NCBI GenBank assembly: GCA_035544215.1
Contig: DATKHY010000007.1
Span: forward strand, 1,364,001 to 1,428,000
DNA from: Candidatus Binatia bacterium
GTDB lineage: Bacteria > Vulcanimicrobiota > Vulcanimicrobiia > Vulcanimicrobiales > Vulcanimicrobiaceae
Direction of reading: 5' to 3'
Length of the DNA: 64,000 bases
Of the stretch, positions 28,500 through 58,867 are shown piece after piece. Below the pieces are notes generated by a model. That model did not search any database. It was not told the origin of the DNA and worked only from the letters and a program-made list of their open reading frames with translations. The translations under genes and the position numbers were made by a program. Position 1 is the first letter of the stretch. Every line of letters begins with the position of its first letter.

Positions 28500-29857
28500 T
28501 CGCCGAACTCGACCGGCGGCTTGCCGGAGCCCTACCGGCAGGCAGCCTCTTCGCCGTTGGCGGGCGCGTGCGCGACGAGCTGCGCCGCCCGATCGAAGGT
28601 TCGGCCGCCCCCGCCGACTCGGACTACGTCGTCGTCGGTCTGCCCCAGGAAGACCTGGTCCTACGGCTGCGCGGTCTAGGCCACGTGGACCTCGTCGGCG
28701 CCTCGTTCGCGGTGCTGAAGGTGACGATCGAGGGTCACACGGTCGACGTGGCCCTTCCCCGCCGGGAGTGGTCCGTGGGAATCGGCCATCGCGACTTCGC
28801 AGTCGAGAGCGGCGATGGAGTCCGACTCGAGGATGACCTCGCGCGGCGCGACTTCCGCATGAACATGATCGCGCGCTCGATTCCTTCGGGCGAGCTCGTC
28901 GACCCGTACGGCGGCGAGGCCGACATTCGCGCTCGACGCATCGACATCTTGACGGCGCAGACTTTCGCGGAGGACCCCCTGCGGATGCTGCGGGCCGCAC
29001 AGTTTGCGGCCCGATTCGAATACGGGGTGACGCCAGCGCTGCGCGCGGGCATGACGGAAGCGGCGACGACGGTGACGACGGTTTCGGCGGAGCGGATCCA
29101 TGACGAAATCGGAAAGCTCTTCCGCGCACGCAAGCCGTCGATTGGGCTCGAGCTCTTGCGCGAGACCGGCGTCCTCGCTCGGCTCTGGCCCGAGCTGCTC
29201 GAGGGCGTCGGCGTCGAGCAAAATCAATGGCACGCCTACGACGTGTACCGCCATAGCCTCGCCACGCTCGACGCCTCGCCGCGGGGCGACCTGGTGCTGC
29301 GGCTGGCGGCCCTGCTGCACGACGTGGGCAAACCCCGCACCAAAGACGGGCCGCATTTTTACCGTCATGAGATCGAGGGGGCGGAGATGACGCGGGCCAT
29401 GCTGGAGCGCTTCCGCTTCTCGAACGACGTCGTCAAAGCCACCGAGCACCTGGTCAGGCAACACATGTATTCGGCCGATCCCGAGCTGAGCGACGCCGCT
29501 TTGCGCCGCTTCATCCGCCGGATCGAGCCAACCAATATCGAACGTTTGTTCGCATTGCGGCAGGCGGACATCGCGGGCAGCGGCCTGCCTCCGCGCGACG
29601 GCGGCAATCGTGCGTTCGAGGCCCGCGTACACGCAGAACTGGCGCGTAAACCCGCGTTTTCGATTCGCGAGCTGGCGATCGACGGTGACGACGTGATCGC
29701 CGAGCTCGTCCGCCGCGGCGACGTGCCGCCCGGTTTTCATGGCGACGAGCGTGTAGGAGCGGCGTTGCGCTGGCTCTTCGAGCAGGTCACCGATGAACCC
29801 GAACGTAACGAGCGCACCTTGCTGCTGCAACTGCTCGAGCAGTATCTCGCAGCGTGA
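28493..29857 (+). CDS. cca: CCA tRNA nucleotidyltransferase with HD domain
   Basis: Adds or repairs the 3' CCA of tRNAs. 454 residues from GTG 28493. The N-terminal class II nucleotidyltransferase head has LFAVGGRVRDELRRP and DSDYVVVG with the metal-binding DxD-type pair (here D-S-D), then LARRDFRMNMIARSI and the nucleotide-selecting FAEDPLRMLRAAQFAARF. A C-terminal HD domain (LAALLHDVGKPRTKDG with YRHEIEGAEM) suggests phosphohydrolase activity as in some bacterial Cca proteins. It overlaps the LAGLIDADG-type gene by four bases and parA by one. Confidence 0.93.
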   Translation: MKLAELDRRLAGALPAGSLFAVGGRVRDELRRPIEGSAAPADSDYVVVGLPQEDLVLRLRGLGHVDLVGASFAVLKVTIEGHTVDVALPRREWSVGIGHRDFAVESGDGVRLEDDLARRDFRMNMIARSIPSGELVDPYGGEADIRARRIDILTAQTFAEDPLRMLRAAQFAARFEYGVTPALRAGMTEAATTVTTVSAERIHDEIGKLFRARKPSIGLELLRETGVLARLWPELLEGVGVEQNQWHAYDVYRHSLATLDASPRGDLVLRLAALLHDVGKPRTKDGPHFYRHEIEGAEMTRAMLERFRFSNDVVKATEHLVRQHMYSADPELSDAALRRFIRRIEPTNIERLFALRQADIAGSGLPPRDGGNRAFEARVHAELARKPAFSIRELAIDGDDVIAELVRRGDVPPGFHGDERVGAALRWLFEQVTDEPERNERTLLLQLLEQYLAA

Positions 29858-30630
29858 TGGCTCGCATCATTGCGCTCGTCAATCAAAAGGGCGGCGTCGG
29901 CAAGAGTACGACCGCCGTGAATCTCGGCGCCGGGCTCGCGATGCTCGGCCGGCGCGTGCTCGTCGTCGACACCGATCCGCAAGGCAACACCACGACGGGG
30001 CTCGGCGTTGAAAAATCCTCGCTGACGCACGACATCTATCACGCACTGATGCAAGAGGTTCCGCTCGATCGCGTTATCGTCAACACTGAGCTCCCTAACC
30101 TGTGGCTCGCTCCGGCGACGATCAATCTCGCGGGCGCCGACGTCGAGCTCGTCGCGGCGCTCTCGCGCGAGACGCGGTTGCGCCAGGCGTTGTCGCCGGT
30201 CGCGTCGCGCTACGAGTTCGTGCTGATCGATTCGCCCCCGTCACTCGGGCTGCTGACGATCAACGCGCTGACCGCCGCTGACGACTGCATCATTCCTGTG
30301 CAGGCGGAGTTCTACGCGCTCGAGGGGCTCGCGCAGCTCACGAGCGTCATATGGCGCGTACGCGACGCGCTCAATCCGACTCTGCACGTCAGCGGCGTGC
30401 TCGTGACGATGTTCGACGGCCGCACGCGGCTGTCGTTGGAAGTCATTCGCGAGCTCCATAAATACTTTCCGGAGCAGGTCTTCAAGACGCAGATTCCGCG
30501 CAACGTACGTCTCTCGGAAGCGCCGTCGTACGGCAAGCCGGCGATCCTCTTCGATCTCAAGAGCCGCGGCGCGCAGGCGTACCTCGCCGTCGCGCGCGAG
30601 ATGCTCGAACCGGCGCGGGCGCGCGCATGA
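29857..30630 (+). CDS. parA: Chromosome partitioning ATPase ParA/Soj
   Basis: Deviant Walker ATPase that with ParB segregates replication origins. 257 residues from ATG 29857 (TGATG overlap with cca); a GTG three bases earlier is also possible. Motifs: ARIIALVNQKGGVGKSTTAV (deviant Walker A, KGGVGKST), VLVVDTDPQGNTTTGLG, FVLIDSPPSLGLLTINAL (Walker B) and the C-terminal RNVRLSEAPSYGKPAILFD characteristic of chromosomal Soj. Overlaps parB as ATGA. Confidence 0.97.
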   Translation: MARIIALVNQKGGVGKSTTAVNLGAGLAMLGRRVLVVDTDPQGNTTTGLGVEKSSLTHDIYHALMQEVPLDRVIVNTELPNLWLAPATINLAGADVELVAALSRETRLRQALSPVASRYEFVLIDSPPSLGLLTINALTAADDCIIPVQAEFYALEGLAQLTSVIWRVRDALNPTLHVSGVLVTMFDGRTRLSLEVIRELHKYFPEQVFKTQIPRNVRLSEAPSYGKPAILFDLKSRGAQAYLAVAREMLEPARARA

Positions 30631-31487
30631 GCGCGCCGAAGCGCGGGCTCGGACGCGGGCTCGCCGCACTTCTCGGCGACGCCGCGGTCCCGGTCGCGAG
30701 CTCCAGCGAGGTCGTGCGCGAGATTTCCGTCGGCGAGATTCGTCCGAATCCGTTTCAGCCGCGCAAGCGATTTGCCGCCGAGGCGTTGGACGAGCTGAAG
30801 GCGTCGATCGCGGAGTACGGCGTGCTCGTGCCGGTCATCGTGCGGCGGCGCGAGCAGGGATATGAGCTGATCGCCGGAGAGCGGCGTTGGCGCGCCTGCG
30901 CCGAACTGCAGCGCCCGACGATTCCGGCGCTCATCCGGACGAGCGACGATCGCCAGACGCTCGAGTTCGCGATCGTCGAAAACCTGCAGCGGGAGAACCT
31001 CAACCCACTCGAGGAAGCCGCGGGCTTCGCGTATCTGATCGACGAGCACGGCCTGACGCAAGAAGAGGTCGCGCGGCGTCTCGGCAAGAGCCGGCCCGCA
31101 GTGGCGAACACGCTACGGCTGCTCGGCCTATCCGACCCAATCAAGGCGATGCTGCTCGACGGCCGGCTCTCGGCGGGGCATGCGCGCGCTCTCCTGGCCG
31201 CGCCCGAGCGCGAGCGCGAAGCGCTGGCCGGTCGGGCCGTAAGCGAGGGGGTGACGGTACGCGGCCTGGAGCGGATCGTCTCCAGCCTGGCGGCGCCGCT
31301 GCAGCGGTCGCCGCTCCTTCGACCGCTCTCGCCGGAAGAGCGCGATTTCGAAGCGCGATTGCGCGAGAAGTTCGGAACGCACGTCGCCGTCGTACGTTAC
31401 GGCCGCGGCGGACGGATCGAGCTGCGTTTCAGCGACGAACCCGAGCTGGTGCGAATCGGCGACCTGTTGTTGGGCGAACACACGTAG
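30627..31487 (+). CDS. parB: Chromosome partitioning protein ParB/Spo0J
   Basis: CTP-dependent DNA clamp that loads at parS and spreads. 286 residues: N-terminal RGLGRGLAALLG, the CTPase/ParB box IRPNPFQPRKRF and LIAGERRWRAC (GERRxRA), ENLQRENLNPLEEAAGFAYL, a helix-turn-helix with LTQEEVARRLGKSRPAVANT that reads parS, and a C-terminal dimerisation segment with REKFGTHVAVVRYGRGGRIE. No intact parS is seen, but split half-sites occur at 28081-28107 and 28473-28499, 1.4-1.8 kb upstream of parA. Confidence 0.97.
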   Translation: MSAPKRGLGRGLAALLGDAAVPVASSSEVVREISVGEIRPNPFQPRKRFAAEALDELKASIAEYGVLVPVIVRRREQGYELIAGERRWRACAELQRPTIPALIRTSDDRQTLEFAIVENLQRENLNPLEEAAGFAYLIDEHGLTQEEVARRLGKSRPAVANTLRLLGLSDPIKAMLLDGRLSAGHARALLAAPEREREALAGRAVSEGVTVRGLERIVSSLAAPLQRSPLLRPLSPEERDFEARLREKFGTHVAVVRYGRGGRIELRFSDEPELVRIGDLLLGEHT

Positions 31488-34273: not shown

Positions 34274-34455
34274 TCAGTTAACCGACGGCGGCCCCGAAGG
34301 CGGCTTGCGCATTAGCGCGGCCAGCGGCGCGCCGAGAATGAGCAAGAACGGAAAAAGAGAATGTGACCGCGCGAGAGCGCGTAGACGATCGCAGCGGCGC
34401 CCAGCATGGTCGCCGCCGCGACGATGATACGAAGCGCGACGCCCGCCGCGGTTAC
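34274..34455 (-). pseudogene. Frameshifted small membrane-protein gene
   Basis: Reading the minus strand from just after the aminotransferase remnant gives a hydrophobic stretch (VALRIIVAAATMLGAAAIVY, then ALSRGHILF) that continues in another frame as PFLLILGAPLAALMRKPPSG before a TGA at 34274-34276. The frames join at a run of five T's on the minus strand (around 34348), consistent with a one-base indel. It could be a decayed gene or a sequencing error. An ATG is at 34407. No family recognised. Confidence 0.35.
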
Positions 34456-34542
34456 CCCTTGAACTTGGGCAGCGTTTTCGCGATCGAATCGAGGGCCCAG
34501 TCGATGTCCTCGCGCGACGCCGCATACGAGAAGGCGCTGATC
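34452..34542 (-). pseudogene. Remnant of aminotransferase 3' end (left island junction)
   Basis: The minus strand encodes FSYAASREDIDWALDSIAKT then LPKFKG and a TAA at 34452-34454, almost identical to the C-terminus of the intact aminotransferase at 39665-40861 (FSYAASLEDIDWALDSIAKT, LPKFKR). At nucleotide level about 95 bases (34448-34542) align without gaps to 39661-39755 with roughly a dozen mismatches. Upstream of 34543 similarity stops. This fits a displaced gene tail left after insertion at the gene's 3' end. Confidence 0.75.
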
Positions 34543-34633: not shown

Positions 34634-35749
34634 CTAGGGTCGCCCCCGCCCATGCGATCGTTTTACCTCGTCGCGAAGCGCACTTATATCCGCCGCTTCC
34701 TTTTGCTGAAGAATTTTAATTTCTTGCGCCCATGCCGGCGGCGCGTAGATTTTATCGAAAGCAAAATAGAGCGAAAGTGCGGCAATTGCGATGGGTACAA
34801 AAAGCGAAACGATATACCAAAGGCGAGTCTGCTTTAAACCCAACTGACGAACCTGAAGGCGTGTCTGCACTAAATAAAGCCAGAACAGTTGAAACCAGAT
34901 CGCGAGTGCCGCCAGCGCAAACGTAAAGTCCCAGACGTTAAATCTCGTGTCCTTTCCGGCGACTGCTGTAAGCGCTGTTACCAGAATGGCTAAGGCCGCG
35001 AAGGTGATAACCGAGTACTGCGTAAACTGGATTTGCAGGCTTCTAAGCGACACTTCGAACTGCCCGACCTTTTCTTTAACCAGCGTCGCTAAGCCACTCT
35101 GTAATCGCGGGTAATCGTCAAATATTATGCGCTTACGCTGGCGTGGTGCGTCATACGGCCGCGACGAGTTCTCATGGAATTCGGTTGTTGGCACAAAGTC
35201 TATAGACGCTATGGCTTCGCGATATCGTAGCGTAACCGGCTTGTTTGAAAGGTTGTAGATTGGACAAAAGAGATGACCCCGATAACCTGGATCGACCTGC
35301 GGCCCGCCTACCCACAACAAGCCTTCGTACGCCCAGCGGACTCTCACGTTCCATCTAGCGATCAGGTACCGTGGCATGTTAAGCCGCTCAAGCGTTTCTA
35401 TTACGGCCACCTCGAATGGGTCGATCGTAAACTCAGCCTCCTCGCTTTCATCGTCGGAGAGGACTCTTTTTTGTCCGCCTATGGAGCAGAGCCGACCAAT
35501 ACGAAGCTCATATGCAGCCGGCTTTAACTGAGCTTCATCGAGTGGGTCAATAAGGCCATACAGTTTACAGTGCAACTTGATCTGATCGCTCAAGAGAACG
35601 CCCCAGAGGTTTGCCCGCAATTCATCGTAATAGGGCTGGGGATCTCTCATTCTTTCGAGGATGCGTAACTCTTGCTCGCGCAAGCTTGGCCCGAAAAACT
35701 CCTCGGGAGCGCTCCTGAGTTTTTGAGTCGCCTGCTTCAACCATCTCAT
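34634..35749 (-). CDS. dCTP deaminase/dUTPase-fold protein fused to three membrane helices
   Basis: 371 residues from ATG 35749, which has a GGGGAG eight bases upstream; a longer frame to 35803 overlaps the previous gene. Residues about 50-187 follow the trimeric dCTP deaminase/dUTPase pattern: WGVLLSDQIKLH, LKPAAYELRIG, FTIDPFEVAVIETLERLNMP, and QVDPGYRGHLFCPIYNLSNK (151-170). The catalytic Glu of dCTP deaminase (in the G-x-I-x-L-E motif) is Pro163 here, so deamination is unlikely, while the Asp of VDPG is kept. Three membrane segments follow (about 244-264, 273-294, 311-331) and a charged cytoplasmic tail. Probably a membrane-anchored nucleotide-binding protein: sensor, effector or phosphatase. 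Last gene of the island operon. Confidence 0.7.
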   Translation of the reverse strand: MRWLKQATQKLRSAPEEFFGPSLREQELRILERMRDPQPYYDELRANLWGVLLSDQIKLHCKLYGLIDPLDEAQLKPAAYELRIGRLCSIGGQKRVLSDDESEEAEFTIDPFEVAVIETLERLNMPRYLIARWNVRVRWAYEGLLWVGGPQVDPGYRGHLFCPIYNLSNKPVTLRYREAIASIDFVPTTEFHENSSRPYDAPRQRKRIIFDDYPRLQSGLATLVKEKVGQFEVSLRSLQIQFTQYSVITFAALAILVTALTAVAGKDTRFNVWDFTFALAALAIWFQLFWLYLVQTRLQVRQLGLKQTRLWYIVSLFVPIAIAALSLYFAFDKIYAPPAWAQEIKILQQKEAADISALRDEVKRSHGRGRP

Positions 35750-35777: not shown

Positions 35778-36860
35778 TTACGATGCAACTTTCTTGGCAG
35801 CAAGACCTGGATCGCTTATTCTTTCGAACGTATCAGCCAGCGAGGGGCCAGTTCCGATCAACCTTACTGGAACACGAAGTCGACGCTCAAGCTCGGAGAC
35901 AAAGTCACGCGATTTTTGGGACAGACGATTAAACGTTTTGACGCCGTGGTCAGCAAACGTGAGATGGTCGATGCAGTTTATTGCAATACTCGTTGGGCGA
36001 TTGACCCTGACGGCGCGGCAGGCTAGGTTCCAATCGAACCGTCCAAGGCGCCGAACTTTCTTTGTGACCGACGTGTACTCCAAGATTGAAGTCGGGCTTT
36101 GGCACTCCGCCTGTAGTTGGTCCCAGGTGATTTCGTCATTCAGCGGCCCCGCCTGCGCGCCGGCGACTCTGATGGGAAATGTGCGCATAACGAGCACGAT
36201 CTCGGACGCAAACCGCGGACTGACGCCGACCTCGCTTAAAAAGGCTGAGGCAGATGTATCCTTCGACGTTGTCTTAGGATAGTGGCCGGAGTGAAATAGA
36301 GACAGACCGAACCCCTGCGTCCCCTCCACTAGAACTCGCTTGCCGCGATCGAGCGCTTCATTAACTTCCTCCGAAACGCTTGCAAGTACGTTCGCAAGCC
36401 AAGGATTCGATGCTGCGGCATCCTTTGCGAGAGTGACATCTGCTCCCCTTAACACTCGGCGGGCAATAGCTGAGCCAACACCGCACAGTGTCGAGCTTAT
36501 CCGATCACCTAGCCTAAGTATACGTTCAGTATTTTTGTCGCACTCATCGATGATCATCGCCTCGACGTCGACTCCCAGCCTCTCGGGTGCTATCCCGAGG
36601 AGTTCGGTCTCTCTTCGCAACACATCGAGGTCGACGGTAGCCCCCGCCGGAATCAACAGACGCGTACGTCTATTAATAAACGCAGTCGGCACCTGCCGCA
36701 CAAGATACTCAGCGCCGTTTTCCGTGACAAAGGAATGCCCCGAGTTGGGGCCTCCACAGCGAACCGCGATATCAACGTCCTGACGCGTCGCAATGATGGC
36801 CGCGACCTTACCCTTGCCTTCGGATCCATATTGGCCACCAACCACAATACTGAGACTCAT
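35778..36860 (-). CDS. Adenylosuccinate synthetase homologue of PurZ type
   Basis: 360 residues, shorter than cellular PurA (about 430). The fold is clear: IVVGGQYGSEGKGKVAAIIA at the N-terminus, CGGPNSGHSFV with conserved His42, VLVEGTQGFGLSLFHSGHYP, KTTSKDTSASAFLSEVGVSP, and the substrate loop ILEYTSVTKKVRRLGRFDW near residue 260. PurA's catalytic Asp13 (QWGDEGKGK) is Ser13 here (QYGSEGKGK). That replacement is, as I recall, the hallmark of phage PurZ, which converts dGMP plus aspartate to the precursor of 2-aminoadenine. The normal PurA of the host is not in the window. The start overlaps the kinase stop as ATGA. Substrate (dGMP, GMP or another) is inference. Confidence 0.75.
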   Translation of the reverse strand: MSLSIVVGGQYGSEGKGKVAAIIATRQDVDIAVRCGGPNSGHSFVTENGAEYLVRQVPTAFINRRTRLLIPAGATVDLDVLRRETELLGIAPERLGVDVEAMIIDECDKNTERILRLGDRISSTLCGVGSAIARRVLRGADVTLAKDAAASNPWLANVLASVSEEVNEALDRGKRVLVEGTQGFGLSLFHSGHYPKTTSKDTSASAFLSEVGVSPRFASEIVLVMRTFPIRVAGAQAGPLNDEITWDQLQAECQSPTSILEYTSVTKKVRRLGRFDWNLACRAVRVNRPTSIAINCIDHLTFADHGVKTFNRLSQKSRDFVSELERRLRVPVRLIGTGPSLADTFERISDPGLAAKKVAS

Positions 36861-37417
36861 GTGTCCTCGTTCTTTCGCAGTCGTTCGAGCAGTGTTGCTA
36901 GTTCTTTCTGATAATCATCGCGGGTGCGGTCATTAGTTACAACCGCCGACGCTTCTGAAACAAGCGCGAGTCCAGGCCTTTCGACTGGATGGTCATCCGC
37001 ACGCCTAAATGCGTCCGGGCTTTGGAATCGGCCCCCGAGCTGTTTACGCTCCCACCGAAGATGCGATGGCGCATCGATATAGAGAAGGTGGAATGCGCCC
37101 GGAAACGCATCGCGCAACATAGCGGCGTCAATCGGGTGTCGCAGCCCATCAATAGCTACATCACGCTTAGGAAGCACTTTGGCAAGTAGTCGTCTATTCA
37201 ATTCAGCTTGACGCTGCTGCATAACGTCCCATCCGACCCCTTGCAATCCTCCGTTTCGATCGCGTTCATTCGGAAGCCATTCCGCTAGTACTGCGCTGTA
37301 GCGCAGATATTGGAAGCTAAATCTCGCTTCTAGGAATCTTGCTCCAGTAGTCTTACCCGCTCCGATTGGACCGGCGAATCCAACGGCTATTGGAGTTTCC
37401 GCCTTTAGACCCGACAC
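36857..37417 (-). CDS. P-loop nucleoside-monophosphate-kinase-like protein
   Basis: 186 residues from GTG 37417, directly abutting the upstream stop (TAGGTG). The Walker A loop is VGFAGPIGAGKTTGARFLEA (near residue 12-31), followed by a substrate-binding segment FQYLRYSAVLAEWL, a Walker-B-like VAIDGLRHPIDAAML and a lid-like RWERKQLGGRFQSPDAFR. The topology resembles dephospho-CoA kinase and phage dNMP kinases. Next to a PurZ-like synthase, a role in phosphorylating an unusual deoxynucleotide is attractive but unproven. Confidence 0.65.
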   Translation of the reverse strand: MSGLKAETPIAVGFAGPIGAGKTTGARFLEARFSFQYLRYSAVLAEWLPNERDRNGGLQGVGWDVMQQRQAELNRRLLAKVLPKRDVAIDGLRHPIDAAMLRDAFPGAFHLLYIDAPSHLRWERKQLGGRFQSPDAFRRADDHPVERPGLALVSEASAVVTNDRTRDDYQKELATLLERLRKNEDT

Positions 37418-38983
37418 CTATACGACTGCCAAATGCGTATCGGCAGGGACCGAGTCTAATCCAGTTTGTCCCAGAATCCACGAAAGCGCTCTATAATTAA
37501 TCTGCGGCGTTTTTGGAACTACGAGATAGCCTTCACGATGGTTTCCCAGCTGGATGAACTCGCCAGCGGAAAAGAAAAGCCCAACAAGGGCAGATGTAAT
37601 CGCATCAACCTCATCGTGCGATGTCTTATCGCCCAAGAAATCTCCGGTTACCCCAACCGCGCGCATTCCCCACCGGAGCTCTTCAAGACTGGTGCCCTTG
37701 CGAGGTATCCGCAGAAGGTCTTGCGCAGCACCCGGATAGCTCTCAATGACCGGAATGCCTGCGCGGCGGAAAACTTCTGCAAGCTTTATCCCGCGGAGCG
37801 TTAGTGTCCGCATGCTTGGAAGCAGACACCAAAAGACCGAAATTCCCATACGCTTTAGCGCGAGCTCGCAGCCGCGATAAATCGGCAGTTTAGCCCGCTT
37901 CCATTGCCTAAGATTCGCCTTTCCGCCAGGAAGCGACAGGGGCGAATCAATTGAAACAAGGTCAGGTTCAGACGCGATTGTCCGTTCGACCAATTCTTTG
38001 TCGGTTTTGATTCGCTGAGTGGTCGCCATGTCGTGGTCCAGCAGCGCCCATCCGCTAGCTCGCTTCTCGCTGCCTGAAAGATCAATTCCAACGACTCTGA
38101 GCGAGGCGCCGCGGCCCTTAGCCTTCTTCAAAAGCGTTCTTACAAGGCTAGGTCGCCCTCGATCGGCGATAACGCTATGGTTCGCAGAGACCTGAACCTT
38201 CACAACGGGATCGTCGTTTTTACGAACCATCAAGGATGGCGCGTTACCGACCCGCTGGGCCATCATGCGGTAGGAGCACTCCATAATCACTTTTAGATTG
38301 ACGACATCCTGCACATTGTACTCAATCAAATCATTGAGCGCCTTGTCGTCGCCGCGCAAATACCTTGACCAAAGCACTGTGGCGCCGAAACCGTCGATAC
38401 ACCTAAGAGGTTCCGGCCTTTCCAGACCAAAGGCCGCTTCGATTGCCTTGAGGCTGCCGCGGTAGCCTAGTCGACGCGTCAGCCAGCGTAGGTCGATATG
38501 AACAGGAGGCAGTTTTAGCTTCGGGAATGCCGCTTCCAGAAACCTAAGGTCGAACTGCGCTCCATTGAACGTTACAACGGCGGCGTACCGCTCTAGTTCA
38601 CGTGGAACCTCGTGCAGATTATGGCCGTCGATAAAAGGGCGGTACAGCCGACCGTCATAAAGGCCAACCATCGTTATAGTGTTAAAGATGGGCGAGAGTC
38701 CAGTGGTCTCAATATCTAGGTAAACGCAAGCGTCCGCAAACGCGTCGAAAAGTCGCCAAGACTCTCCGGCTGAAGCTAAGTTTGCAAAGAAAGCAGCATC
38801 GCGTTCCTTTAAGGCGCGTTGCGATCGAGGCACATACTCCGCAAGTTTTCTAGCTAGCGCGCCGCGTACTGGTACCGACGGCAGCCTTTCTACGTCGGCC
38901 CACGTGCGGATTCCAACTTCCCAAAGTTTTCTTTCGGTCGCCGGCCCCACCCCTGGTATGTGAACAAATGTTCGGTCCAACAT
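37418..38983 (-). CDS. HhH + DEDD exonuclease (RNase H-like) + DUF429 fusion protein
   Basis: 521 residues. A helix-hairpin-helix at 7-33 (VHIPGVGPATERKLWEVGIR) suggests DNA binding. Residues about 85-245 form a YprB-like DEDD exonuclease with DIETTGLSP (Asp90, Glu92), VTFNGAQFDLRFLEA (Asp145) and LIEYNVQDVVNLKVIM (Asp226). Residues about 296-480 match DUF429, a predicted RNase H-fold nuclease: LRVVGIDLSGSEKRASGWAL (Asp301), LVSIDSPLSLPGG (Asp346) and DKTSHDEVDAITSALVGLFF (Asp457, Asp460). Both acidic sets look complete, so two nuclease activities are possible in one chain. First gene of the island operon, divergent from the integrase fragment. Confidence 0.8.
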   Translation of the reverse strand: MLDRTFVHIPGVGPATERKLWEVGIRTWADVERLPSVPVRGALARKLAEYVPRSQRALKERDAAFFANLASAGESWRLFDAFADACVYLDIETTGLSPIFNTITMVGLYDGRLYRPFIDGHNLHEVPRELERYAAVVTFNGAQFDLRFLEAAFPKLKLPPVHIDLRWLTRRLGYRGSLKAIEAAFGLERPEPLRCIDGFGATVLWSRYLRGDDKALNDLIEYNVQDVVNLKVIMECSYRMMAQRVGNAPSLMVRKNDDPVVKVQVSANHSVIADRGRPSLVRTLLKKAKGRGASLRVVGIDLSGSEKRASGWALLDHDMATTQRIKTDKELVERTIASEPDLVSIDSPLSLPGGKANLRQWKRAKLPIYRGCELALKRMGISVFWCLLPSMRTLTLRGIKLAEVFRRAGIPVIESYPGAAQDLLRIPRKGTSLEELRWGMRAVGVTGDFLGDKTSHDEVDAITSALVGLFFSAGEFIQLGNHREGYLVVPKTPQINYRALSWILGQTGLDSVPADTHLAVV

Positions 38984-39043: not shown

Positions 39044-39607
39044 ATGAGCCGGAAAAAGGCATTGGTAGACCATCCGCAAGCCAGCACACTGGAGCAGTGG
39101 CGGGCACTGGCGCTGCGCCGCAGCTCCCTGGCGGGTTCGACGGTGAGAGTCTATTCGAGCGACATAAGCCGCTTCCTGAACAGCCTAAGCGGGAGCCCTC
39201 TAGATAAGGTCACGACCAACACAATGGCGGCCTTCCTTGCTAAGTTGGACCGCCGTAGCCGCAGCCGGATGTTGTCAGCCCTTAGCGAGTTTTTCGCATT
39301 CGCTTTCGAAAAAGGCCTGATGGAGAACGATCCGCTCCGCAGCCTAAAGTACCGGAGAAGCCGCGCTGCGGCTGTCGCTCAACTGGACTTCCTTCCGCTT
39401 CTTTCCAAGGCAGGAATTGCTTCACCCGAGCAGCTGACTTGGGAAGATTTTGTTAGACCCATGGTGGACCGTGAAGAAAGCAAGGTGCAAGTCAACGGAA
39501 GGCTCGTCACCCTAACGCCATACGTCTGGAATCGGCTCGAAGTACGCTTCCGAAACTTGGCGAGCCGCCATACCCTGAGGCAGCTCCTCAGAAGGCGCAT
39601 TGCCTAA
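39044..39607 (+). CDS. Tyrosine recombinase N-terminal (SAM-like) domain, catalytic domain absent
   Basis: 187 residues. The first 115 residues match the core-binding SAM-like domain of phage integrases (LEQWRALALRRSSLAGSTVR, VYSSDISRFLNSLSG, SALSEFFAFAFEKGLMENDP, LRSLKYRR). The expected catalytic domain with R-H-R-Y does not follow; instead about 70 residues with KVQVNGRLVTLTPYVWNRLE end in an Arg-rich tail. A 7-base inverted repeat CCAAGCA/TGCTTGG (39624-39647) lies after the stop. Either a truncated integrase or a recombination-directionality accessory protein. Its place beside the right junction supports an integrase origin. Confidence 0.6.
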   Translation: MSRKKALVDHPQASTLEQWRALALRRSSLAGSTVRVYSSDISRFLNSLSGSPLDKVTTNTMAAFLAKLDRRSRSRMLSALSEFFAFAFEKGLMENDPLRSLKYRRSRAAAVAQLDFLPLLSKAGIASPEQLTWEDFVRPMVDREESKVQVNGRLVTLTPYVWNRLEVRFRNLASRHTLRQLLRRRIA

Positions 39608-39664
39608 GAGACCGCACTGGCAACCAAGCACAAGTATGTATGCTTGGGCGTCGTACAGCGGCGG

Positions 39665-40861
39665 TTACCTCTTGAACTTCGGCAGCGTTTTCGCGATCGA
39701 GTCGAGCGCCCAATCGATATCTTCCAACGACGCCGCATAGGAGAAGCGCAGATAGCCCTTGCCGGCGGCGCCGAACGATGAGCCGCCACCGCAGGCCACG
39801 CCGCCCTCCTCGAGGAGGAACTTCGCCAGCGCGCGATCGTCATGCGTGATCGCGCCGACGTTAGGGAAGGCGTAAAAGGCGCCCTCCGGGAGCAAGCACG
39901 ACATGCCCTGGATCGAGTTGAGGCCGCCGACCAGGCGGTCGCGGCGAGCGCGGAAGATTTCGTTCATGCGCTGCACGGGCTCGTCCGGTGCTGTGAGGGC
40001 CGCGATGCCGGCCATCTGAACGAAGGTCGCGACGCAGCTGAACGTGTTGTTGTTGAACAGCGTCACGGCGCGCGCGAGGTCCTCGGGCATGAGCGCGTAG
40101 CCGAGGCGCCAGCCGGTCATCGCGTACGCCTTCGAGAAGCCATCGACGACGATCGTGCGCTCGCGCATGCCCGGGAGCGACGCAATCGACAGATACTCCT
40201 GATCGAGATAGAAGTTGCGGCTGTAGATCTCGTCGGCCAGCACGAGGAAGTCGTAGCGCAGCGCAAGCTCGGCGATGAACTCGAGGTCGCTCCGCGTGAG
40301 AACGCCGCCGGTCGGATTGTGCGGCGAGTTGATCACGACGACTTTGGTCTTCTTGGACACACGGCGCGCGAGCTCGTCGAGATCCATGCGCCAGTTGCGC
40401 GACTCGAGCAGCGGGATCGCGTGCACGGTCGCCTGGAGGTAGCCAGCGCAGGAGGCGTACGCCGGATAGGCGGGATCGAAGTAGACGAACTCATCGCCCG
40501 GGCCGAGCAGCGCGCTCAGCGTGTTCCATATGACCGGCTTGGCGCCGGGCGAGACGACGACGTTCTCGGGACGCCATTCGGGGGAGACGTGCCGGAAGCG
40601 GCTGGCGTAGCTCGCGATGGTCGCGCGCAGCGACGGCAGCCCACTCGACGGCGTATAGTGCGTATGGTTGTCGTAGAGCGCATCGACCGCGGCCTTTTTG
40701 ATCCCGTCGGGGGTGTCGAAATCGGGCTCGCCGATCTCCATGTGGACGACCCTGCGGCCTTGCGCTTCGAGCTCTCGGGCGCGCGCCAAAATCTCGAACG
40801 CGTTCTCGGATCCCAACCGCGCCACGGCCTCGGCCAAACGATCTTCGTGCACTGCGAGCAT
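39665..40861 (-). CDS. Class I/II PLP-dependent aminotransferase (aspartate aminotransferase-like)
   Basis: 398 residues. Conserved elements are HMEIGEPDFDTPDGIKKAAV, HYTPSSGLPSLRATIASYAS, VVVINSPHNPTGGVLTR (Asn contacting PLP), ADEIYSR (Asp and Tyr of the cofactor site), VVDGFSKAYAMTGWRLGY with the Schiff-base Lys, and KGYLRFSYAAS with the substrate-carboxylate Arg. It probably transaminates aspartate or a related amino acid. Its last 90 bases are duplicated at 34452-34542 on the other side of the island, so the present 3' end may be the one brought in by the element. Divergent from the large repeat protein. Confidence 0.9.
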   Translation of the reverse strand: MLAVHEDRLAEAVARLGSENAFEILARARELEAQGRRVVHMEIGEPDFDTPDGIKKAAVDALYDNHTHYTPSSGLPSLRATIASYASRFRHVSPEWRPENVVVSPGAKPVIWNTLSALLGPGDEFVYFDPAYPAYASCAGYLQATVHAIPLLESRNWRMDLDELARRVSKKTKVVVINSPHNPTGGVLTRSDLEFIAELALRYDFLVLADEIYSRNFYLDQEYLSIASLPGMRERTIVVDGFSKAYAMTGWRLGYALMPEDLARAVTLFNNNTFSCVATFVQMAGIAALTAPDEPVQRMNEIFRARRDRLVGGLNSIQGMSCLLPEGAFYAFPNVGAITHDDRALAKFLLEEGGVACGGGSSFGAAGKGYLRFSYAASLEDIDWALDSIAKTLPKFKR

Positions 40862-52199: not shown

Positions 52200-52265
52200 G
52201 TGGCACAGCCAGGTTGCTACATACGAACGGCTGCGCAGTTGCTTTGTAGAGACGTCGCAACGAGG

Positions 52266-53621
52266 ATGCAGAGGATGGCGCTAGCGATCAATTCGGACAT
52301 TTCCAATGAGCTCTGGCAGTCCGCACTCGACACTCTGGAGCACACCTTCTCCAAACCCGTCTTCGAGATGTGGATCAAACCGATCCGCTTCATCTCACTT
52401 CACGGCAACGAGCTCCATCTCGCCGTGCACAGCAAGTTTGCACAAGACTGGGTAGGAAGCAAGCTCCGGGCGCAGATGATCGGCGTCTTAAGCGAGCTCT
52501 TTGGAACCAGCATCGAGCTCCGGCTGTCGGTCGCCGAGCCCGGGGAAGGCAACCGCGCCGCGTATATTCCCACGCGCCCGCTCGAAGAGTTCCGTACCGC
52601 AAACCTTAATGTTCGTTATACTTTCGAAGAGTTTGTCGTCGGCAATTCGAATCGGTTTGCGCATGCGGCGGCGCAGGCCGTCGCCGGTGCGCCTGCCCAC
52701 GCGTACAACCCGCTCTTCCTATATGGCGGCGTCGGTCTCGGAAAGACACACTTGATGCACGCCATCGGCCACCGCGTCATCCAAGACAACCTGGCCTCCA
52801 ACGTCGTGTACGTGACCTGCGAGAAGTTCACGAACGAGTTCATCATTGCGTTGCAGAACAACCGCACACCGGAGTTTCGCAACCGGTATCGTCAGGTCGA
52901 CGTGCTGCTGATCGACGACATCCAGTTTCTCGCCGGCAAGGAGACTACGCAAGAAGAGTTCTTCCACACTTTCAACGCGCTCCACGAATCCGGCCGGCAG
53001 CTGATCATCTCGTCGGACCGCCCGCCGAAAGAGATCCAGACGCTCGAGGCGCGGCTGCGCTCCCGATTCGAATGGGGCCTGCTCACCGACATCCAGGCGC
53101 CCGATCTGGAAACACGCGAAGCGATCCTGCGCAAGAAGGCCGCCAGCGAGAACATCCCCGTCCCGGACGAGGTAACGTCGTTCATCGCCAAGGTGATCCC
53201 GTCGAACATCCGCGAGCTCGAGGGCGCCCTCATCCGAGTCATCGCGTACGCCTCGCTCACGAAGGCTCCCATCACCACCGACCTCGCGGCCGACGTCCTC
53301 AAAAGCGCCGTGGCGCAGGCCCCGCTGCATCGCATCACGATCGGGAAGATCAAGGAGACGGTCTCGAGCGCGCACGGCCTGACGGTCAAGGAGATGGACA
53401 ACGGGCGACGAGATCAGCGCCTAGCCGCGCCACGCCAGATCGCGATGTACATCGCCACCGAGCTCACCAACTATTCCCTGCCGCAGATCGCGCGCGAGTT
53501 CGGCAAGAAGGATCACACGACGGTCATGTACGCTCGCGACAAGATCAAGGACCAGATGCAGCGCGACGAGGCGTACCGGAACAAGATCCGTCAGCTCATC
53601 GCGATGTGCCAGACCCCCTGA
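52266..53621 (+). CDS. dnaA: Chromosomal replication initiator DnaA
   Basis: Binds DnaA boxes and melts the origin. From ATG 52266, 451 residues; ATG 52275 and a much longer GTG at 52200 are alternatives, but the extra residues of the latter are not DnaA-like. Domain I has LWQSALDTLEHTFSKPVFEM; domain III has YGGVGLGKTHLMHAIGHRVI (Walker A), VDVLLIDDIQFLAGKE (Walker B) and SSDRPPKEI; domain IV has the DNA-binding signature FGKKDHTTVMYARDKIKDQM near the C-terminus. No strong ribosome-binding site was seen before either ATG. Confidence 0.97.
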   Translation: MQRMALAINSDISNELWQSALDTLEHTFSKPVFEMWIKPIRFISLHGNELHLAVHSKFAQDWVGSKLRAQMIGVLSELFGTSIELRLSVAEPGEGNRAAYIPTRPLEEFRTANLNVRYTFEEFVVGNSNRFAHAAAQAVAGAPAHAYNPLFLYGGVGLGKTHLMHAIGHRVIQDNLASNVVYVTCEKFTNEFIIALQNNRTPEFRNRYRQVDVLLIDDIQFLAGKETTQEEFFHTFNALHESGRQLIISSDRPPKEIQTLEARLRSRFEWGLLTDIQAPDLETREAILRKKAASENIPVPDEVTSFIAKVIPSNIRELEGALIRVIAYASLTKAPITTDLAADVLKSAVAQAPLHRITIGKIKETVSSAHGLTVKEMDNGRRDQRLAAPRQIAMYIATELTNYSLPQIAREFGKKDHTTVMYARDKIKDQMQRDEAYRNKIRQLIAMCQTP

Positions 53622-53894
53622 CCGTCGGCGGCGCATCACCGGCCACTGCTCTCCACACTCTCGACAGCCTTGCACACCGGCGCGGCGTGCTCCGACGCAT
53701 AACTCGGCCGCGGCCCGGCCGGCGTGGAGAAGTGGATGGTCAACTCCCGGCCATACACACGGTTATCCCTAGCCGAAATGCAAACCAGCACAAGCAAATT
53801 CCGAGTTGTCCTCAGAATACACCGCCCTACTACTGCTACGGCTCTATTGTTATTTTCCTAGGAAAACGGCGGCTCACGCCCAACGGTGAAAACG
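53622..53894. other. dnaA-dnaN intergenic region
   Basis: 273 bases without a gene. One DnaA-box-like sequence on the opposite strand, TTATCCCTA at 53763-53771, one mismatch-tolerant GTGGAGAAG at 53724-53732, and an AT-rich end (GTTATTTTCCTAGGAAAACG near 53849) that contains the short palindrome TTTTCCTAGGAAAA. It may carry secondary origin elements or the dnaN promoter. Confidence 0.5.
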
Positions 53895-55010
53895 ATGAAA
53901 TTTAGTTGCACGACGAAAGACATCGCGGCGGCCGTCGGAGCGGCCAGCAAAGTGGTGAACGCTCATACCACCGTGCCGATCCTCTCCAACGTGCTGCTGC
54001 AAGGCGAGGGCGGAAAGATCGCGGTGCGCGCGACCGATCTCGAGCTGACGCTCGAGCACGCCTTCCCTGCGCAGGTGACCGAGGGCGGCTCGGTCACGGT
54101 ACCGGCGAAGCTCTTTGCAAGTTATCTCGGCAACCTCGCCCCGGGGACGCTCGAGCTCACCGGCACGCCCACGCGCGCGAGCGTCAAGTACGAGCGCAGC
54201 AACTACGACTTCCACGCCCTGCCGGCCGAGGAGTATCCTCCGCTGCCGGCCGCTTCGCGCGGGTCCCAGTTCGGCATCGCGGCAAAGCGCTTCCGCGACG
54301 GCATCGAGGCGACGATCTTCGCGGCCTCCAGCGAGGAGGCTCGGGGCGCCGTGCTGATGGGCACTCTGTTGGAGGTGGAGGGCAAGTCGCTGACGATGGT
54401 CGCGACCGACGGCTATCGCCTGGCCAAGTTCGCGACGACGATCGACGACGAGGTTTCGGCGAACGAGAAGTTCATCGTGCCCTCCCGGGCGCTGGCTGAA
54501 GTCGCCCGCAATCTCGGGGGCGGCGAAAGCATCGAGGTCAGCGCGCTCGGCGCGCAGAGCAACCAGCTTCGCATGACCGGCGGCGACGTCTCGATCACGG
54601 TCCGTCTCGTCGACGGGCAGTATCCCAACTATCAGCAGGTCATCCCGGCGAAGTTCGATCGCACGATCACCGTGAGCACCCCGGCCCTGATCGGCAGCCT
54701 GCGGCGGGCCGAGCTCGTCGCGGGTGACCGCGCCAGCATGGTCAAGCTCGCGATCGCCAATCAAACGTTAATCGTAACGGCCAGCTCCGACATCTCGGGC
54801 AACGCGTACGAGGAGCTGGAGGTCGAGCAGACCGGCGAGGATCTAACGATCGCGTTCAACGCGCGCTACCTGGTCGAGATCCTGAATCACATCAAGGGCG
54901 ACAAGGCCGTCATCGAGTTCCTCGGCCCGCTCTCGCCGGCGGCGATCCGCCCGTTGGAACCGCTCGAGACCGGCCAGCAACTGTACGTGCTCATGCCGCT
55001 TCGGCAATGA
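53895..55010 (+). CDS. dnaN: DNA polymerase III beta sliding clamp
   Basis: Ring-shaped processivity clamp. 371 residues from ATG 53895 (a GTG nine bases earlier is in frame). Three repeats of the clamp fold; typical parts are VVNAHTTVPILSNVLLQGEG, DGIEATIFAASSEEARGAVL, LMGTLLEVEGKSLTMVATDG and the C-terminal AIRPLEPLETGQQLYVLMPL with the conserved P-M-R-like end (PLRQ here). Immediately followed by recF. Confidence 0.97.
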   Translation: MKFSCTTKDIAAAVGAASKVVNAHTTVPILSNVLLQGEGGKIAVRATDLELTLEHAFPAQVTEGGSVTVPAKLFASYLGNLAPGTLELTGTPTRASVKYERSNYDFHALPAEEYPPLPAASRGSQFGIAAKRFRDGIEATIFAASSEEARGAVLMGTLLEVEGKSLTMVATDGYRLAKFATTIDDEVSANEKFIVPSRALAEVARNLGGGESIEVSALGAQSNQLRMTGGDVSITVRLVDGQYPNYQQVIPAKFDRTITVSTPALIGSLRRAELVAGDRASMVKLAIANQTLIVTASSDISGNAYEELEVEQTGEDLTIAFNARYLVEILNHIKGDKAVIEFLGPLSPAAIRPLEPLETGQQLYVLMPLRQ

Positions 55011-55011
55011 T

Positions 55012-56121
55012 GTGTTCCTTCGCCGCATAGGCTTTTCGAATTTTCGCAACTATTTCGAACTGGATCTCGAGCCCGCGACGGGCCTGAACGTGTTCGTCGG
55101 CGCCAACGCGCAGGGCAAGAGTAATTTGCTCGAGGGAATCGCGATGCTCGGCACCGGAAAGTCGTTTCGCACCGCGCGCGACGCCGATGCCGTGCGGGCC
55201 GGATGCGATCGCGCGGAGTTGTCCGGCGAGGCGGCCGCGCGCTCGGGCAACGTGAACCTGGCGTGCACGATCGAGCGCGGAGCGCGCGGGACTCGCAAGA
55301 GCTACACGGTCAACGCGAGCCCCGTGCGCTATGCGAGCTACCTCGGAAGAATTCGCGTCGTAACGTTCGTCCCGGCGGATCTCAAACTGGCCGCTGGAAC
55401 GCCGAGCGCGCGGCGCGCGTTTCTGAACATCGCCTTGGCGCAAACGGAGCCGCGCTACTACTACGAGCTGGCGCGCTACCGCAAGGCGCTGCAGCAAAAG
55501 AACGCCGTGCTGCGCGGCACAGTCGAATCGGACGCGGAGCTACTCGACGTCTACGAACGGACGCTGCTCGCGGCCGGCACGGAGATCATGCTCGCGCGCG
55601 CGCGGCTCATCGACGAGCTCGCGCGAGGCGCCGCCGCCGCGCACGCGCGCTTCGCGCCTGACGAGAAGCTCGAGGTTCGCTACGATCCCAACGTCGCGTT
55701 CGATGCAGCAACTACGGAGGCCATCGCGGCGGCGTTCGAGGCGCGCGTGCAACACGCCGCGGACGCAGAACGCGCGCGCAAGACCGCTCTCGTCGGGCCG
55801 CATCGCGATGACGTCAGCCTCTCGCTCGACGGCGCGTCGCTGGCGGCGTACGGATCGCAGGGACAGCAGCGCACGGCGGTACTCGCGCTGAAGGTCGCCG
55901 AATATGCCGTCATGCGGGAACGCTCGAGCGAGGCTCCGTTGCTGTTGCTCGACGACGTGCTGTCGGAGCTCGACGAGACGCGCGCGAGCGCGTTTCTCGG
56001 TGAGATCGGCGAGTACGAGCAAGCCTTTGTCACGGCCACGCACCTGCCGGCGGGGTTGTTGGGCGCCGCCTGCGTTGCGCGCGTCGACGACGCGCGCGTG
56101 CTGGAGTGGGTCGCGTGCTGA
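55012..56121 (+). CDS. recF: DNA replication and repair protein RecF
   Basis: SMC-like ATPase that helps load RecA at gaps. 369 residues from GTG 55012. Walker A VFVGANAQGKSNLLEGIAML near residue 27, the RecF-type FLNIALAQTEPRYYYELARY, signature YGSQGQQRTAVLALKVAE and Walker B LLLLDDVLSELDETR. Starts one base after the dnaN stop and overlaps the dciA gene. Confidence 0.96.
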   Translation: MFLRRIGFSNFRNYFELDLEPATGLNVFVGANAQGKSNLLEGIAMLGTGKSFRTARDADAVRAGCDRAELSGEAAARSGNVNLACTIERGARGTRKSYTVNASPVRYASYLGRIRVVTFVPADLKLAAGTPSARRAFLNIALAQTEPRYYYELARYRKALQQKNAVLRGTVESDAELLDVYERTLLAAGTEIMLARARLIDELARGAAAAHARFAPDEKLEVRYDPNVAFDAATTEAIAAAFEARVQHAADAERARKTALVGPHRDDVSLSLDGASLAAYGSQGQQRTAVLALKVAEYAVMRERSSEAPLLLLDDVLSELDETRASAFLGEIGEYEQAFVTATHLPAGLLGAACVARVDDARVLEWVAC

Positions 56122-56953
56122 AGCTCTCAAAGGCGCTGTCGGGCTGGGAGCCGGCCGCCGGCGCGGCCGAGCGCGAACCGCTGACTCTGCTGGAGGCCGG
56201 CTGGCCGGACATCGTCGGCGAGCAGGTCGCGCGCAACTCGCACCCGTCGCGAATAGCGAGCGGAACGCTCGTGGTCACGACTCGCTCGAACGCGTGGAGC
56301 CACCAGCTCAGCCTCTTGAGCGAGCACGTGTTGCGCGCGATCGCGGCGCGGGTGCCGAAAGCCGGTGTCGAGCGGCTGCGCTTTCGCGTGGGAAGGCTGC
56401 CGCAAGCCGATGCTCGGCCTTTGGCGCGCACGCGCCACGTTCGCTCAGGCGCCCGCGCCGCGCGTCCGGAGGCAGCGTCGCCGGCTGAGGCGCTCGCGCG
56501 GTTCCGGCGAGAGGTCGAGGAAACGGGCCTCGCCAAGCGCTCGGAGGGCTGGTCGGCCTGCGCCGGCTGCGGCGCCCTCGTTCCTCCCGACGGCGGCCGC
56601 GTCTGCGCGGCCTGCGGCAACCAAATGCGGCGCCGGCGGGCGGAGGCGACGGCGCGGCTGCTGTTCGAGGCGCCTTGGCTTGGTTACAGCGGAACGGCAG
56701 CGCTCGTTGAAGGGTTAAGAAGAGAGGAGTACGAGGGGATTCGCACCCAGCTGCTTACGCGCTGGTGGAGCCTGCTCGTGCAAGCGCGGGTCGCGAAGCG
56801 GCTGTCGCGCAGCGGACGCGAGCGGCTCGTCGCGAGCTCGTACGTTTTATTGCGGAGTAACGTGCCGCCGGAAGAGATCATGCCGGCAACGGTACGCAAC
56901 GTCTTGGGGGACGAGCTCCACGACTTGATCTACGCGGAACAACGAAACACATA

Positions 56954-56954
<1 letters not shown>
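56115..56954 (+). CDS. dciA: DciA/DUF721-type helicase loader with zinc-ribbon and C-terminal extension
   Basis: DciA loads the replicative helicase in bacteria lacking DnaC or DnaI. From GTG 56115 the protein has 279 residues. The DUF721 domain occupies about 1-95 (LEAGWPDIVGEQVARNSHPS, GTLVVTTRSNAWSHQLSLLS). After a basic linker a CxxC..CxxC ribbon appears (WSACAGCGALVPPDGGRVCA, then ACGNQ, about 153-177), followed by about 100 helical residues (YEGIRTQLLTRWWSLLVQAR). The ribbon and tail are extra relative to simple DciA. The recF-dciA-gyrB order is typical; the gyrB ATG overlaps its TAA. Confidence 0.85.

Positions 56955-58867
<1,913 letters not shown>

What the first reader, a model, noticed from the sequence alone, without database searches (positions are those of the whole stretch)
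35778..36860. PurA homologue with catalytic Asp replaced by Ser, outside a phage genome
Seen: QYGSEGKGK in place of QWGDEGKGK, 360 residues, and a changed substrate loop (TSVTKKVRRLGRFD instead of the TTGRxRRxGW type). Known: Asp13 is the general base in PurA; the Ser variant is, to my recollection, diagnostic for PurZ acting on dGMP. Inference: it uses a 2-amino purine substrate.
Basis: partly seen in the sequence, partly recalled or inferred. Interest (0 to 1): 0.85.

Follow-up and report, generated by a model that had tools for sequence, protein, structure and literature searches.

The report
Cellular PurZ-like enzyme in mobile cassette
A bacterial chromosome carries a small inserted islet whose enzyme belongs with the phage enzymes that make the rare DNA building block 2-aminoadenine; the same set of genes (nuclease, nucleotide kinase, this enzyme, and a membrane-anchored nucleotide-binding protein) turns up scattered across many bacteria and archaea, which suggests an undescribed nucleotide-based system, possibly antiviral.

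Summary
Window 35778-36860 (minus strand) encodes a 360-aa adenylosuccinate synthetase homologue with Ser13 in place of Asp13, beside the genome's own normal PurA. A tree puts it outside PurA and with phage PurZ/PurZ0 (split support 100), inside a large cellular clade. It shares PurZ sequence marks: PIRV plus a loop insertion plus ExxW, and Ser or Gly at position 13. So a 2-aminopurine deoxynucleotide substrate is likely, though untested.

The larger finding is the cassette. In the same order, HhH-RNase_H_2-DUF429 nuclease, dNMP kinase, PurZ-like enzyme and DCD-fold membrane protein recur across many bacterial and archaeal phyla: 47 of 68 loci with room have all parts. The DCD protein has lost the deaminase Glu and the triphosphate-binding RSS motif, and carries a transmembrane-type helix. 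In the window the cassette sits on a 5.1-kb, 54% GC islet (rest 67%) between 89-bp repeats of an aminotransferase 3' end, beside a partial integrase; genus-mates have the empty site. Carriage is patchy (1-7%).

My best reading: a mobile nucleotide-signalling or nucleotide-pool defence system. The enzymology is well supported; the defence role is inferred.

The parts
34445..34533 (.). Distal 89-bp direct repeat (copy of the 3' end of the aminotransferase gene): left end of the inserted islet
   Evidence: the repeat finder D1, 87% identical to 39658-39746; blastn 97 bp at 85.6%, E=4e-28; translates to the aminotransferase C-terminus
34634..35749 (-). DCD-fold (dCTP deaminase/dUTPase superfamily) protein with helical, predicted transmembrane C-terminal part, 371 aa (alternative TTG start at 35803); proposed nucleotide-binding membrane effector
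   Evidence: Pfam DCD E=4e-14; AF2 + Foldseek best hits T. pacificus dUTPase 8y1w, E=7e-14, TMt 0.84; three hydrophobic segments; Glu to Pro and RSS lost across the family
35778..36860 (-). PurZ-like (Ser-type) adenylosuccinate synthetase homologue, 360 aa; predicted 2-aminopurine (d)NMP + Asp ligase
36857..37417 (-). P-loop dNMP-kinase-like protein, 186 aa (GTG start; overlaps PurZ-like gene by 4 bp)
   Evidence: PHROG 139 dNMP kinase E=2e-6, Pfam AAA_18 weak; same family is fused to the nuclease in most relatives
37418..38983 (-). HhH + RNase_H_2 (DEDD exonuclease-like) + DUF429-like (RNase H-fold) protein, 521 aa
   Evidence: Pfam RNase_H_2 E=2e-30, DUF429 E=3e-4; catalytic-type acidic residues conserved in 61 relatives
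39044..39607 (+). Partial tyrosine recombinase (N-terminal SAM-like domain only), 187 aa, islet remnant of an integrase
   Evidence: Pfam Phage_int_SAM_1 E=5e-10; no catalytic domain
39658..39746 (.). Proximal copy of the 89-bp repeat = genuine 3' end of the aminotransferase gene (39665-40861, minus): right end of the islet
   Evidence: genus-mates have TrpRS and aminotransferase adjacent without the islet

Best explanation
The protein is a cellular PurZ-like synthetase. It most likely condenses aspartate with a 2-amino-6-oxopurine deoxynucleotide (dGMP) to give N6-succino-2-amino-dAMP (dSMP), which the host's or the cassette's PurB can turn into 2-amino-dAMP (dZMP), and the cassette's dNMP kinase then phosphorylates it. 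It works inside a horizontally moved cassette. The HhH-RNase_H_2-DUF429 protein is a nuclease that could sense or degrade invading DNA and supply dNMPs. The DCD-fold membrane protein has lost the deaminase and triphosphate-hydrolase signature residues, so I propose it binds the unusual nucleotide and acts as a membrane effector. The whole is most likely an antiviral system using a non-canonical deoxynucleotide, in the manner of Kongming (dITP) or CBASS membrane effectors. SHOWN: sequence, clade, cassette conservation, loss of DCD catalytic motifs, hydrophobic membrane-type segments, mobile islet, patchy carriage. INFERRED: dGMP as substrate (about 0.75), product phosphorylated by the kinase (about 0.6), DCD protein as ligand-gated effector (about 0.45), antiviral role (about 0.5).
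For: Ser/Gly13 with all other catalytic residues kept; PurA vs PurZ-side split at 100; PIRV + loop insertion + ExxW shared with phage PurZ/PurZ0, absent from PurA sequences scored; 21 of 23 tested hosts keep a canonical PurA as well. Cassette: 56 of 80 loci have the nuclease just upstream and 55 the DCD protein immediately downstream on the same strand; 47 of 68 loci with room have nuclease, DCD and kinase; nuclease and kinase are one fused polypeptide in most relatives; Lokiarchaeota and Methanophagales loci add PurB and dNK, a haloarchaeal locus adds adenylate kinase. DCD protein: catalytic Glu replaced by Pro in 97%, RSS motif absent, 64 of 70 with at least one hydrophobic TM-type segment. 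The gene next to the synthetase varies (DCD-TM, AAA+ ATPase, DUF7002) as in signal/effector systems. Islet with repeats, partial integrase, low GC, empty sites. Patchy: 1 cassette plus 1 variant in 149 genomes of the phylum, 7/200 in the Granulicella locus's family, 13/199 in the Bradyrhizobium genus.
Against: No enzyme assay. NCBIfam PurZ (225 bits, cut-off 300) and archaeal PurA (323, cut-off 368) are both below cut-off, and the closest solved fold is archaeal PurA rather than PurZ. PADLOC knows neither the PurZ-like nor the DCD protein. Enrichment of defence genes around the cassettes is only suggestive (71 vs 15 PADLOC models matched in 125 proteins each; many models fall on the same protein). 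Several cassettes sit next to replication or partition genes, which could point to a housekeeping role.
Confidence: 0.45

Rival explanations
1. The cassette makes dZTP for DNA: cells (or their mobile elements) insert 2-aminoadenine into DNA as a self mark, and the nuclease attacks unmarked DNA (a modification-restriction logic).
For: PurZ-like synthetase, dNMP kinase, PurB or adenylate kinase in some archaeal cassettes; nuclease domains in the same operon; in PurZ phages the same enzymes serve Z-DNA (PMC12884076, PMC8342488).
Against: No Z-selective polymerase (DpoZ) and no DatZ/MazZ partner among the conserved cassette genes; hosts keep PurA and so dATP; the DCD protein lacks DutZ's GRSS and C-terminal Gly-rich motifs; a membrane anchor is unexplained.
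Confidence: 0.2
2. Nucleotide-pool depletion defence: the synthetase, nuclease and DCD protein consume dGMP/dNTPs on infection, like dGTPase and dCTP deaminase defence, with no signal molecule.
For: All parts act on DNA or deoxynucleotides; islet and patchy spread.
Against: PurZ-type chemistry is costly and slow as a depletion device; the DCD domain seems catalytically altered; a kinase has no obvious place.
Confidence: 0.15
3. Nucleotide salvage or house-cleaning operon: recycles DNA breakdown products or sanitises damaged dNMPs; not defence.
For: Exonuclease, dN(M)P kinase, dUTPase-fold protein; some copies lie next to parAB, gyrB, dnaN or dnaA.
Against: Very patchy within a genus or family, recombinase-bounded islet and plasmid copies, membrane helix on the DCD protein, exchange of the DCD partner for AAA+ or DUF7002.
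Confidence: 0.15
4. Ordinary PurA paralogue that still makes adenylosuccinate from IMP.
For: Fold closest to P. horikoshii PurA; Asp of the NKxD-like GTP motif retained (D298).
Against: General-base Asp gone throughout the clade; separate clade at 100; PurZ loop marks; canonical PurA also present.
Confidence: 0.05

Closest known systems
Phage PurZ / PurZ0 (2-amino-adenylosuccinate synthetase, PDB 6fko/6fm1, 7odx, 7vf6)
   Same: Fold, Ser for Asp13, PIRV + loop insertion + ExxW, same side of the tree
   Different: 27-38% identity; separate, mostly cellular clade; no Z-polymerase or DatZ context; accompanied by nuclease, kinase and membrane DCD protein
Archaeal PurA (P. horikoshii 2d7u/5k7x)
   Same: Closest single sequence and fold (39% id, TMq 0.87); short form without the bacterial PurA inserts
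   Different: Has Asp at 13, PTRVGAGP loop, no ExxW; lies in the PurA clade
DCD/dUTPase superfamily, including phage DutZ
   Same: Domain fold, best match T. pacificus and P45 dUTPases
   Different: RSS motif and catalytic Glu lost, no C-terminal Gly-rich motif, coiled coil and TM helix added
Kongming (dITP second messenger; described in PMC12948488) and Clover (PMC12265719)
   Same: Non-canonical or regulatory deoxynucleotides as immune cue; in Kongming also a dNMP kinase step
   Different: Different enzymes; here synthetase and kinase are both host-encoded and the proposed effector is a membrane DCD protein; immune role untested
Toyocamycin-type 7-deazapurine cluster on R. leguminosarum plasmids (L006)
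   Same: PurA-like gene on a mobile replicon, 36-37% identical to the window protein
   Different: Asp at position 13; PurA clade; with folE, queC/D/E, nitrile hydratase

Membership tests
PurA (IMP adenylosuccinate synthetase) | Catalytic Asp13 | tested here: not met
   Ser13; clade Ser/Gly
PurA (IMP adenylosuccinate synthetase) | Placement within the PurA clade | tested here: not met
   PurA rows form one side of a branch with support 100, window on the other
PurA (IMP adenylosuccinate synthetase) | PurA fold and remaining active-site residues | tested here: met
   pLDDT 93, 5k7x TMq 0.87; K16, H42, Q182, R270/271 invariant
PurZ / PurZ0 | Ser in place of Asp13 | tested here: met
   the 147 phage PurZ-group sequences of PMC12884076 all have Ser
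PurZ / PurZ0 | Same side of the tree as phage PurZ | tested here: met
   115-row Ser-side group, support 100; tree not outgroup-rooted
PurZ / PurZ0 | NCBIfam NF038379 curated score | tested here: not met
   225 bits against cut-off 300; PHROG 1211 E=4e-66
PurZ / PurZ0 | PIRV, insertion after the conserved Val, ExxW (loop near C2' in PMC8342488) | tested here: met
   FPIRVAGAQAGPLNDEITW; also in PurZ0 phages; absent from PurA sequences scored
PurZ / PurZ0 | dGMP + Asp ligase activity | not testable with these tools
   needs enzyme assay
PurZ / PurZ0 | Z-genome context (DpoZ, DatZ/MazZ or DutZ) | tested here: not met
   none among conserved neighbours; DCD protein lacks DutZ motifs
dCTP deaminase (for the partner gene) | Catalytic Glu and RSS motif | tested here: not met
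   P in 97% at the Glu column; RSS absent
dCTP deaminase (for the partner gene) | DCD/dUTPase fold | tested here: met
   Foldseek E=7e-14 to 8y1w
Anti-phage defence system | Mobile, patchy, horizontally acquired | tested here: met
   islet with repeats and empty sites; patchy carriage
Anti-phage defence system | Located among defence genes | tested here: inconclusive
   more PADLOC matches than around canonical PurA, small sample; clear in Rhizobium plasmid relatives
Anti-phage defence system | Protects cells from phage | not testable with these tools
   needs phage challenge

The most novel reading that the evidence does not exclude
Cellular life (bacteria and archaea) widely carries a mobile immune system that makes a 2-aminoadenine-type deoxynucleotide as an alarm signal, sensed by a catalytically altered DCD-fold membrane effector; phage PurZ, the basis of Z-DNA genomes, would then be a relative or descendant of immune enzymes.
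Probability: 0.3. Interest if true: 0.92.

Novelty: new variant of a known kind. Interest (0 to 1): 0.78.

Why it matters
2-aminoadenine nucleotide synthesis is known only from phages with Z-DNA. A broad cellular clade of PurZ-like enzymes in a fixed gene cassette shows that the chemistry is probably not phage-private, gives a possible reservoir or origin for phage PurZ, and points to an undescribed deoxynucleotide-based system whose other parts (HhH-RNase_H_2-DUF429-kinase fusion, membrane DCD protein) have no assigned function. It is directly testable by assay, LC-MS and phage challenge, and culturable hosts exist (Bradyrhizobium, Nostoc, Mesorhizobium, Agrobacterium, Sphingomonas).

Tried and rejected
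A single-protein scan of genome contigs found nothing; the alignment scan found 394 relatives. DutZ-like hydrolase for the DCD protein: rejected on motif grounds by comparison with Ghobes gp55. Secondary-metabolite use (toyocamycin-like): rejected, that homologue is Asp-type and in the PurA clade. Prophage or phage origin of the islet: no phage genes, only a partial integrase. A TnpB/CAST link among neighbours was not pursued, as it is probably from unrelated elements. HMM hits to PurB in viral contigs come from an iterated profile and were used only where Pfam confirmed PurB (L044). No paper in the library describes the cassette.

Full report
OBSERVATION. The ORF at 35778-36860 lies on the minus strand and encodes 360 aa with GGQYGSEGKGK and TSVTKKVRRLGRFD, as reported. 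Family searches give Pfam Adenylsucc_synt (2e-44) and PHROG 1211, the phage PurZ family (4e-66), but it falls below both the NCBIfam PurZ and archaeal PurA cut-offs. The same genome carries a canonical Asp-type PurA on another contig. A dedicated search of the phylum (149 genomes) found one other non-canonical relative, a kinase-PurZ fusion with a TAG stop and a DUF7002 gene in G107.

FAMILY PLACEMENT. An alignment-based scan of 85k genomes found 394 relatives. In a 128-row maximum-likelihood tree all PurA sequences (bacterial, archaeal and the toyocamycin-like BGC copy) fall on one side of a branch with support 100, and all Ser/Gly-type sequences on the other. The window protein groups with Acidobacteriota cassette proteins and one protein from an IMG/VR contig (L117) at 99; phage PurZ and PurZ0 are separate clades on the same side. 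The tree is midpoint-rooted and the search was the 'quick' one, so I claim the split, not a rooted ancestry. In 77 cellular sequences position 13 is Ser (72) or Gly (5) while the rest of the active site is invariant. The loop after the conserved Val near the ribose C2', described as deformed by an insertion in PurZ (PMC8342488), reads PIRV[AG]GNSGPLxxExxW in most cellular and PurZ0 sequences, and PTRVGAGPFPTE in the short-form PurAs scored (the simple motif missed many bacterial PurAs). A published tree (PMC12884076) already noted four archaeal Ser/Gly sequences basal to phage PurZ. That PurA's Arg303 contacts the IMP ribose is from PMC8342488; here the aligned residue is Lys268, and the column is mixed Arg/Lys in the clade, so I do not call it diagnostic. 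The AF2 model (pLDDT 93) matches archaeal PurA best, then PurZ0 and phiVC8 PurZ.

HOSTS KEEP PurA. In 21 of 23 genomes with the Ser-type gene a strong canonical or archaeal PurA is present too; the two exceptions are MAGs. The enzyme is therefore an additional paralogue, not the purine housekeeping enzyme.

CASSETTE. Neighbour clustering showed the same genes around the synthetase almost everywhere. Order: HhH + RNase_H_2 + DUF429-like protein, dNMP kinase (fused to the nuclease in about 690-aa forms; separate in the window and its Acidobacteriota kin), PurZ-like enzyme, DCD-fold protein, then often a dNK (28 loci) or a 250-aa 'YxGDxxDFxKYxLLR' family without Pfam match (21 loci). Of 68 loci with room on both sides, 53 have the nuclease, 58 the DCD protein, 52 a kinase and 47 all three. 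The scan patterns contained only PurZ residues, so neighbours were not selected for. Variants replace the DCD gene by an AAA+ ATPase in planctomycete, verrucomicrobial, omnitrophote and acidobacterial loci, or by DUF7002 with a kinase-PurZ fusion and an HD-type dNMP phosphatase on Rhizobium, Agrobacterium and Methylobacterium plasmids. Lokiarchaeota and Methanophagales loci add PurB, a haloarchaeal locus adds adenylate kinase: just the steps expected after a dSMP-forming enzyme.

THE DCD PROTEIN. Its domain folds like DCD-type dUTPases, but the deaminase Glu is Pro in 97% of 70 relatives and the RSS phosphate-binding motif is gone, replaced by an RFNL/RWN-type sequence. The phage DutZ of Ghobes keeps GRSS and the C-terminal Gly-rich motif. 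64 of 70 have at least one hydrophobic TM-length segment, flanked by coiled-coil-like helices. I infer a nucleotide-binding membrane effector; loss of motifs is shown, sensing is not.

MOBILITY. The cassette region has 54% GC against 67% for the rest of the window. It is bounded by 89-bp direct repeats (34445-34533 and 39658-39746, 87%), the second being the real 3' end of an aminotransferase gene, and contains a partial tyrosine recombinase (39044-39607). In genus-mates TrpRS and the aminotransferase are adjacent with no islet. This is the footprint of site-specific integration at a gene's 3' end. Carriage elsewhere is patchy: 7 of 200 genomes in one acidobacterial family and 13 of 199 in the Bradyrhizobium genus. 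PADLOC matches among cassette neighbours were more numerous than around canonical PurA of the same genomes, with a CBASS-type effector, HORMA, PglX and DrmC models among them, but the sample is small and one protein can match many models.

MECHANISM. Most likely: the synthetase makes dSMP from dGMP, PurB and the cassette kinase give 2-amino-dA nucleotides, and the DCD-membrane protein responds to them, with the nuclease supplying dNMPs or marking infection. Kongming, which uses phage-derived dAMP, a phage dNMP kinase and dITP (PMC12948488), and Clover (PMC12265719) show that such logic exists. Everything after 'PurZ-like enzyme in a conserved mobile cassette' is inference. Rivals, their tests and probabilities are listed in their own sections.

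NOVELTY. I found no description of the cassette in the paper library (most subscription papers are missing from that library). PurZ itself is known; cellular, cassette-borne PurZ-like enzymes with a membrane DCD partner appear to be a new variant, possibly a new system.

Noticed in passing
L033 6043-6687, L034 5959-6693, L035 5167-5862, L036 5983-6801: Another DCD-like gene sits in Rhizobiales plasmid cassettes with some of: uracil-DNA glycosylase, HTH, ImmA/IrrE peptidase, C1 peptidase, MazG or a 'DNA base hypermodification' protein; resembles a predicted defence system in PMC13092281.
   Followed up: no
L006 7375-15722: Rhizobium leguminosarum plasmid cluster with folE, queC/D/E, IMPDH, purA-like, purB, nitrile hydratase, PRTase, HAD: a toyocamycin/sangivamycin-like 7-deazapurine cluster in rhizobia.
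   Followed up: partly
window 29854-31487 and 52200-58000; L037, L040, L055, L076: Several cassettes lie close to parAB, dnaA, dnaN or gyrB, more often than I would expect by chance; could be an insertion preference near the replication origin.
   Followed up: partly
L064, L066, L068, L069, L077, L107: In planctomycete, verrucomicrobial, omnitrophote and one acidobacterial locus a ~730-aa protein with AAA+ ATPase domain takes the place of the DCD-membrane protein after the PurZ-like gene.
   Followed up: partly
L056 8617-9390, L086 10146-10916 and 19 other loci: A ~250-aa family (YxGDxxDFxKYxLLR ... FLDPDNG ... YHH) with no Pfam match accompanies the PurZ-like gene in 21 loci; function unknown.
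   Followed up: no
L013 892-2547: Genome G107 of the same family carries a kinase-PurZ fusion interrupted by a TAG codon, followed by DUF7002: probably a decayed copy of the other cassette type.
   Followed up: partly
L117 7944-9032: An IMG/VR contig of 81 kb with phage-type nucleotide genes (dCMP deaminase-like, QueE-like) encodes a PurZ 50% identical to the window protein and nested among the cassette proteins: exchange between phages and cellular cassettes.
   Followed up: partly
L133, L145 and other viral contigs: Viral contigs with PurZ followed by a ~365-aa PurB-like lyase and a dUTPase-fold gene: possible phages with their own adenylosuccinate lyase for Z synthesis.
   Followed up: no
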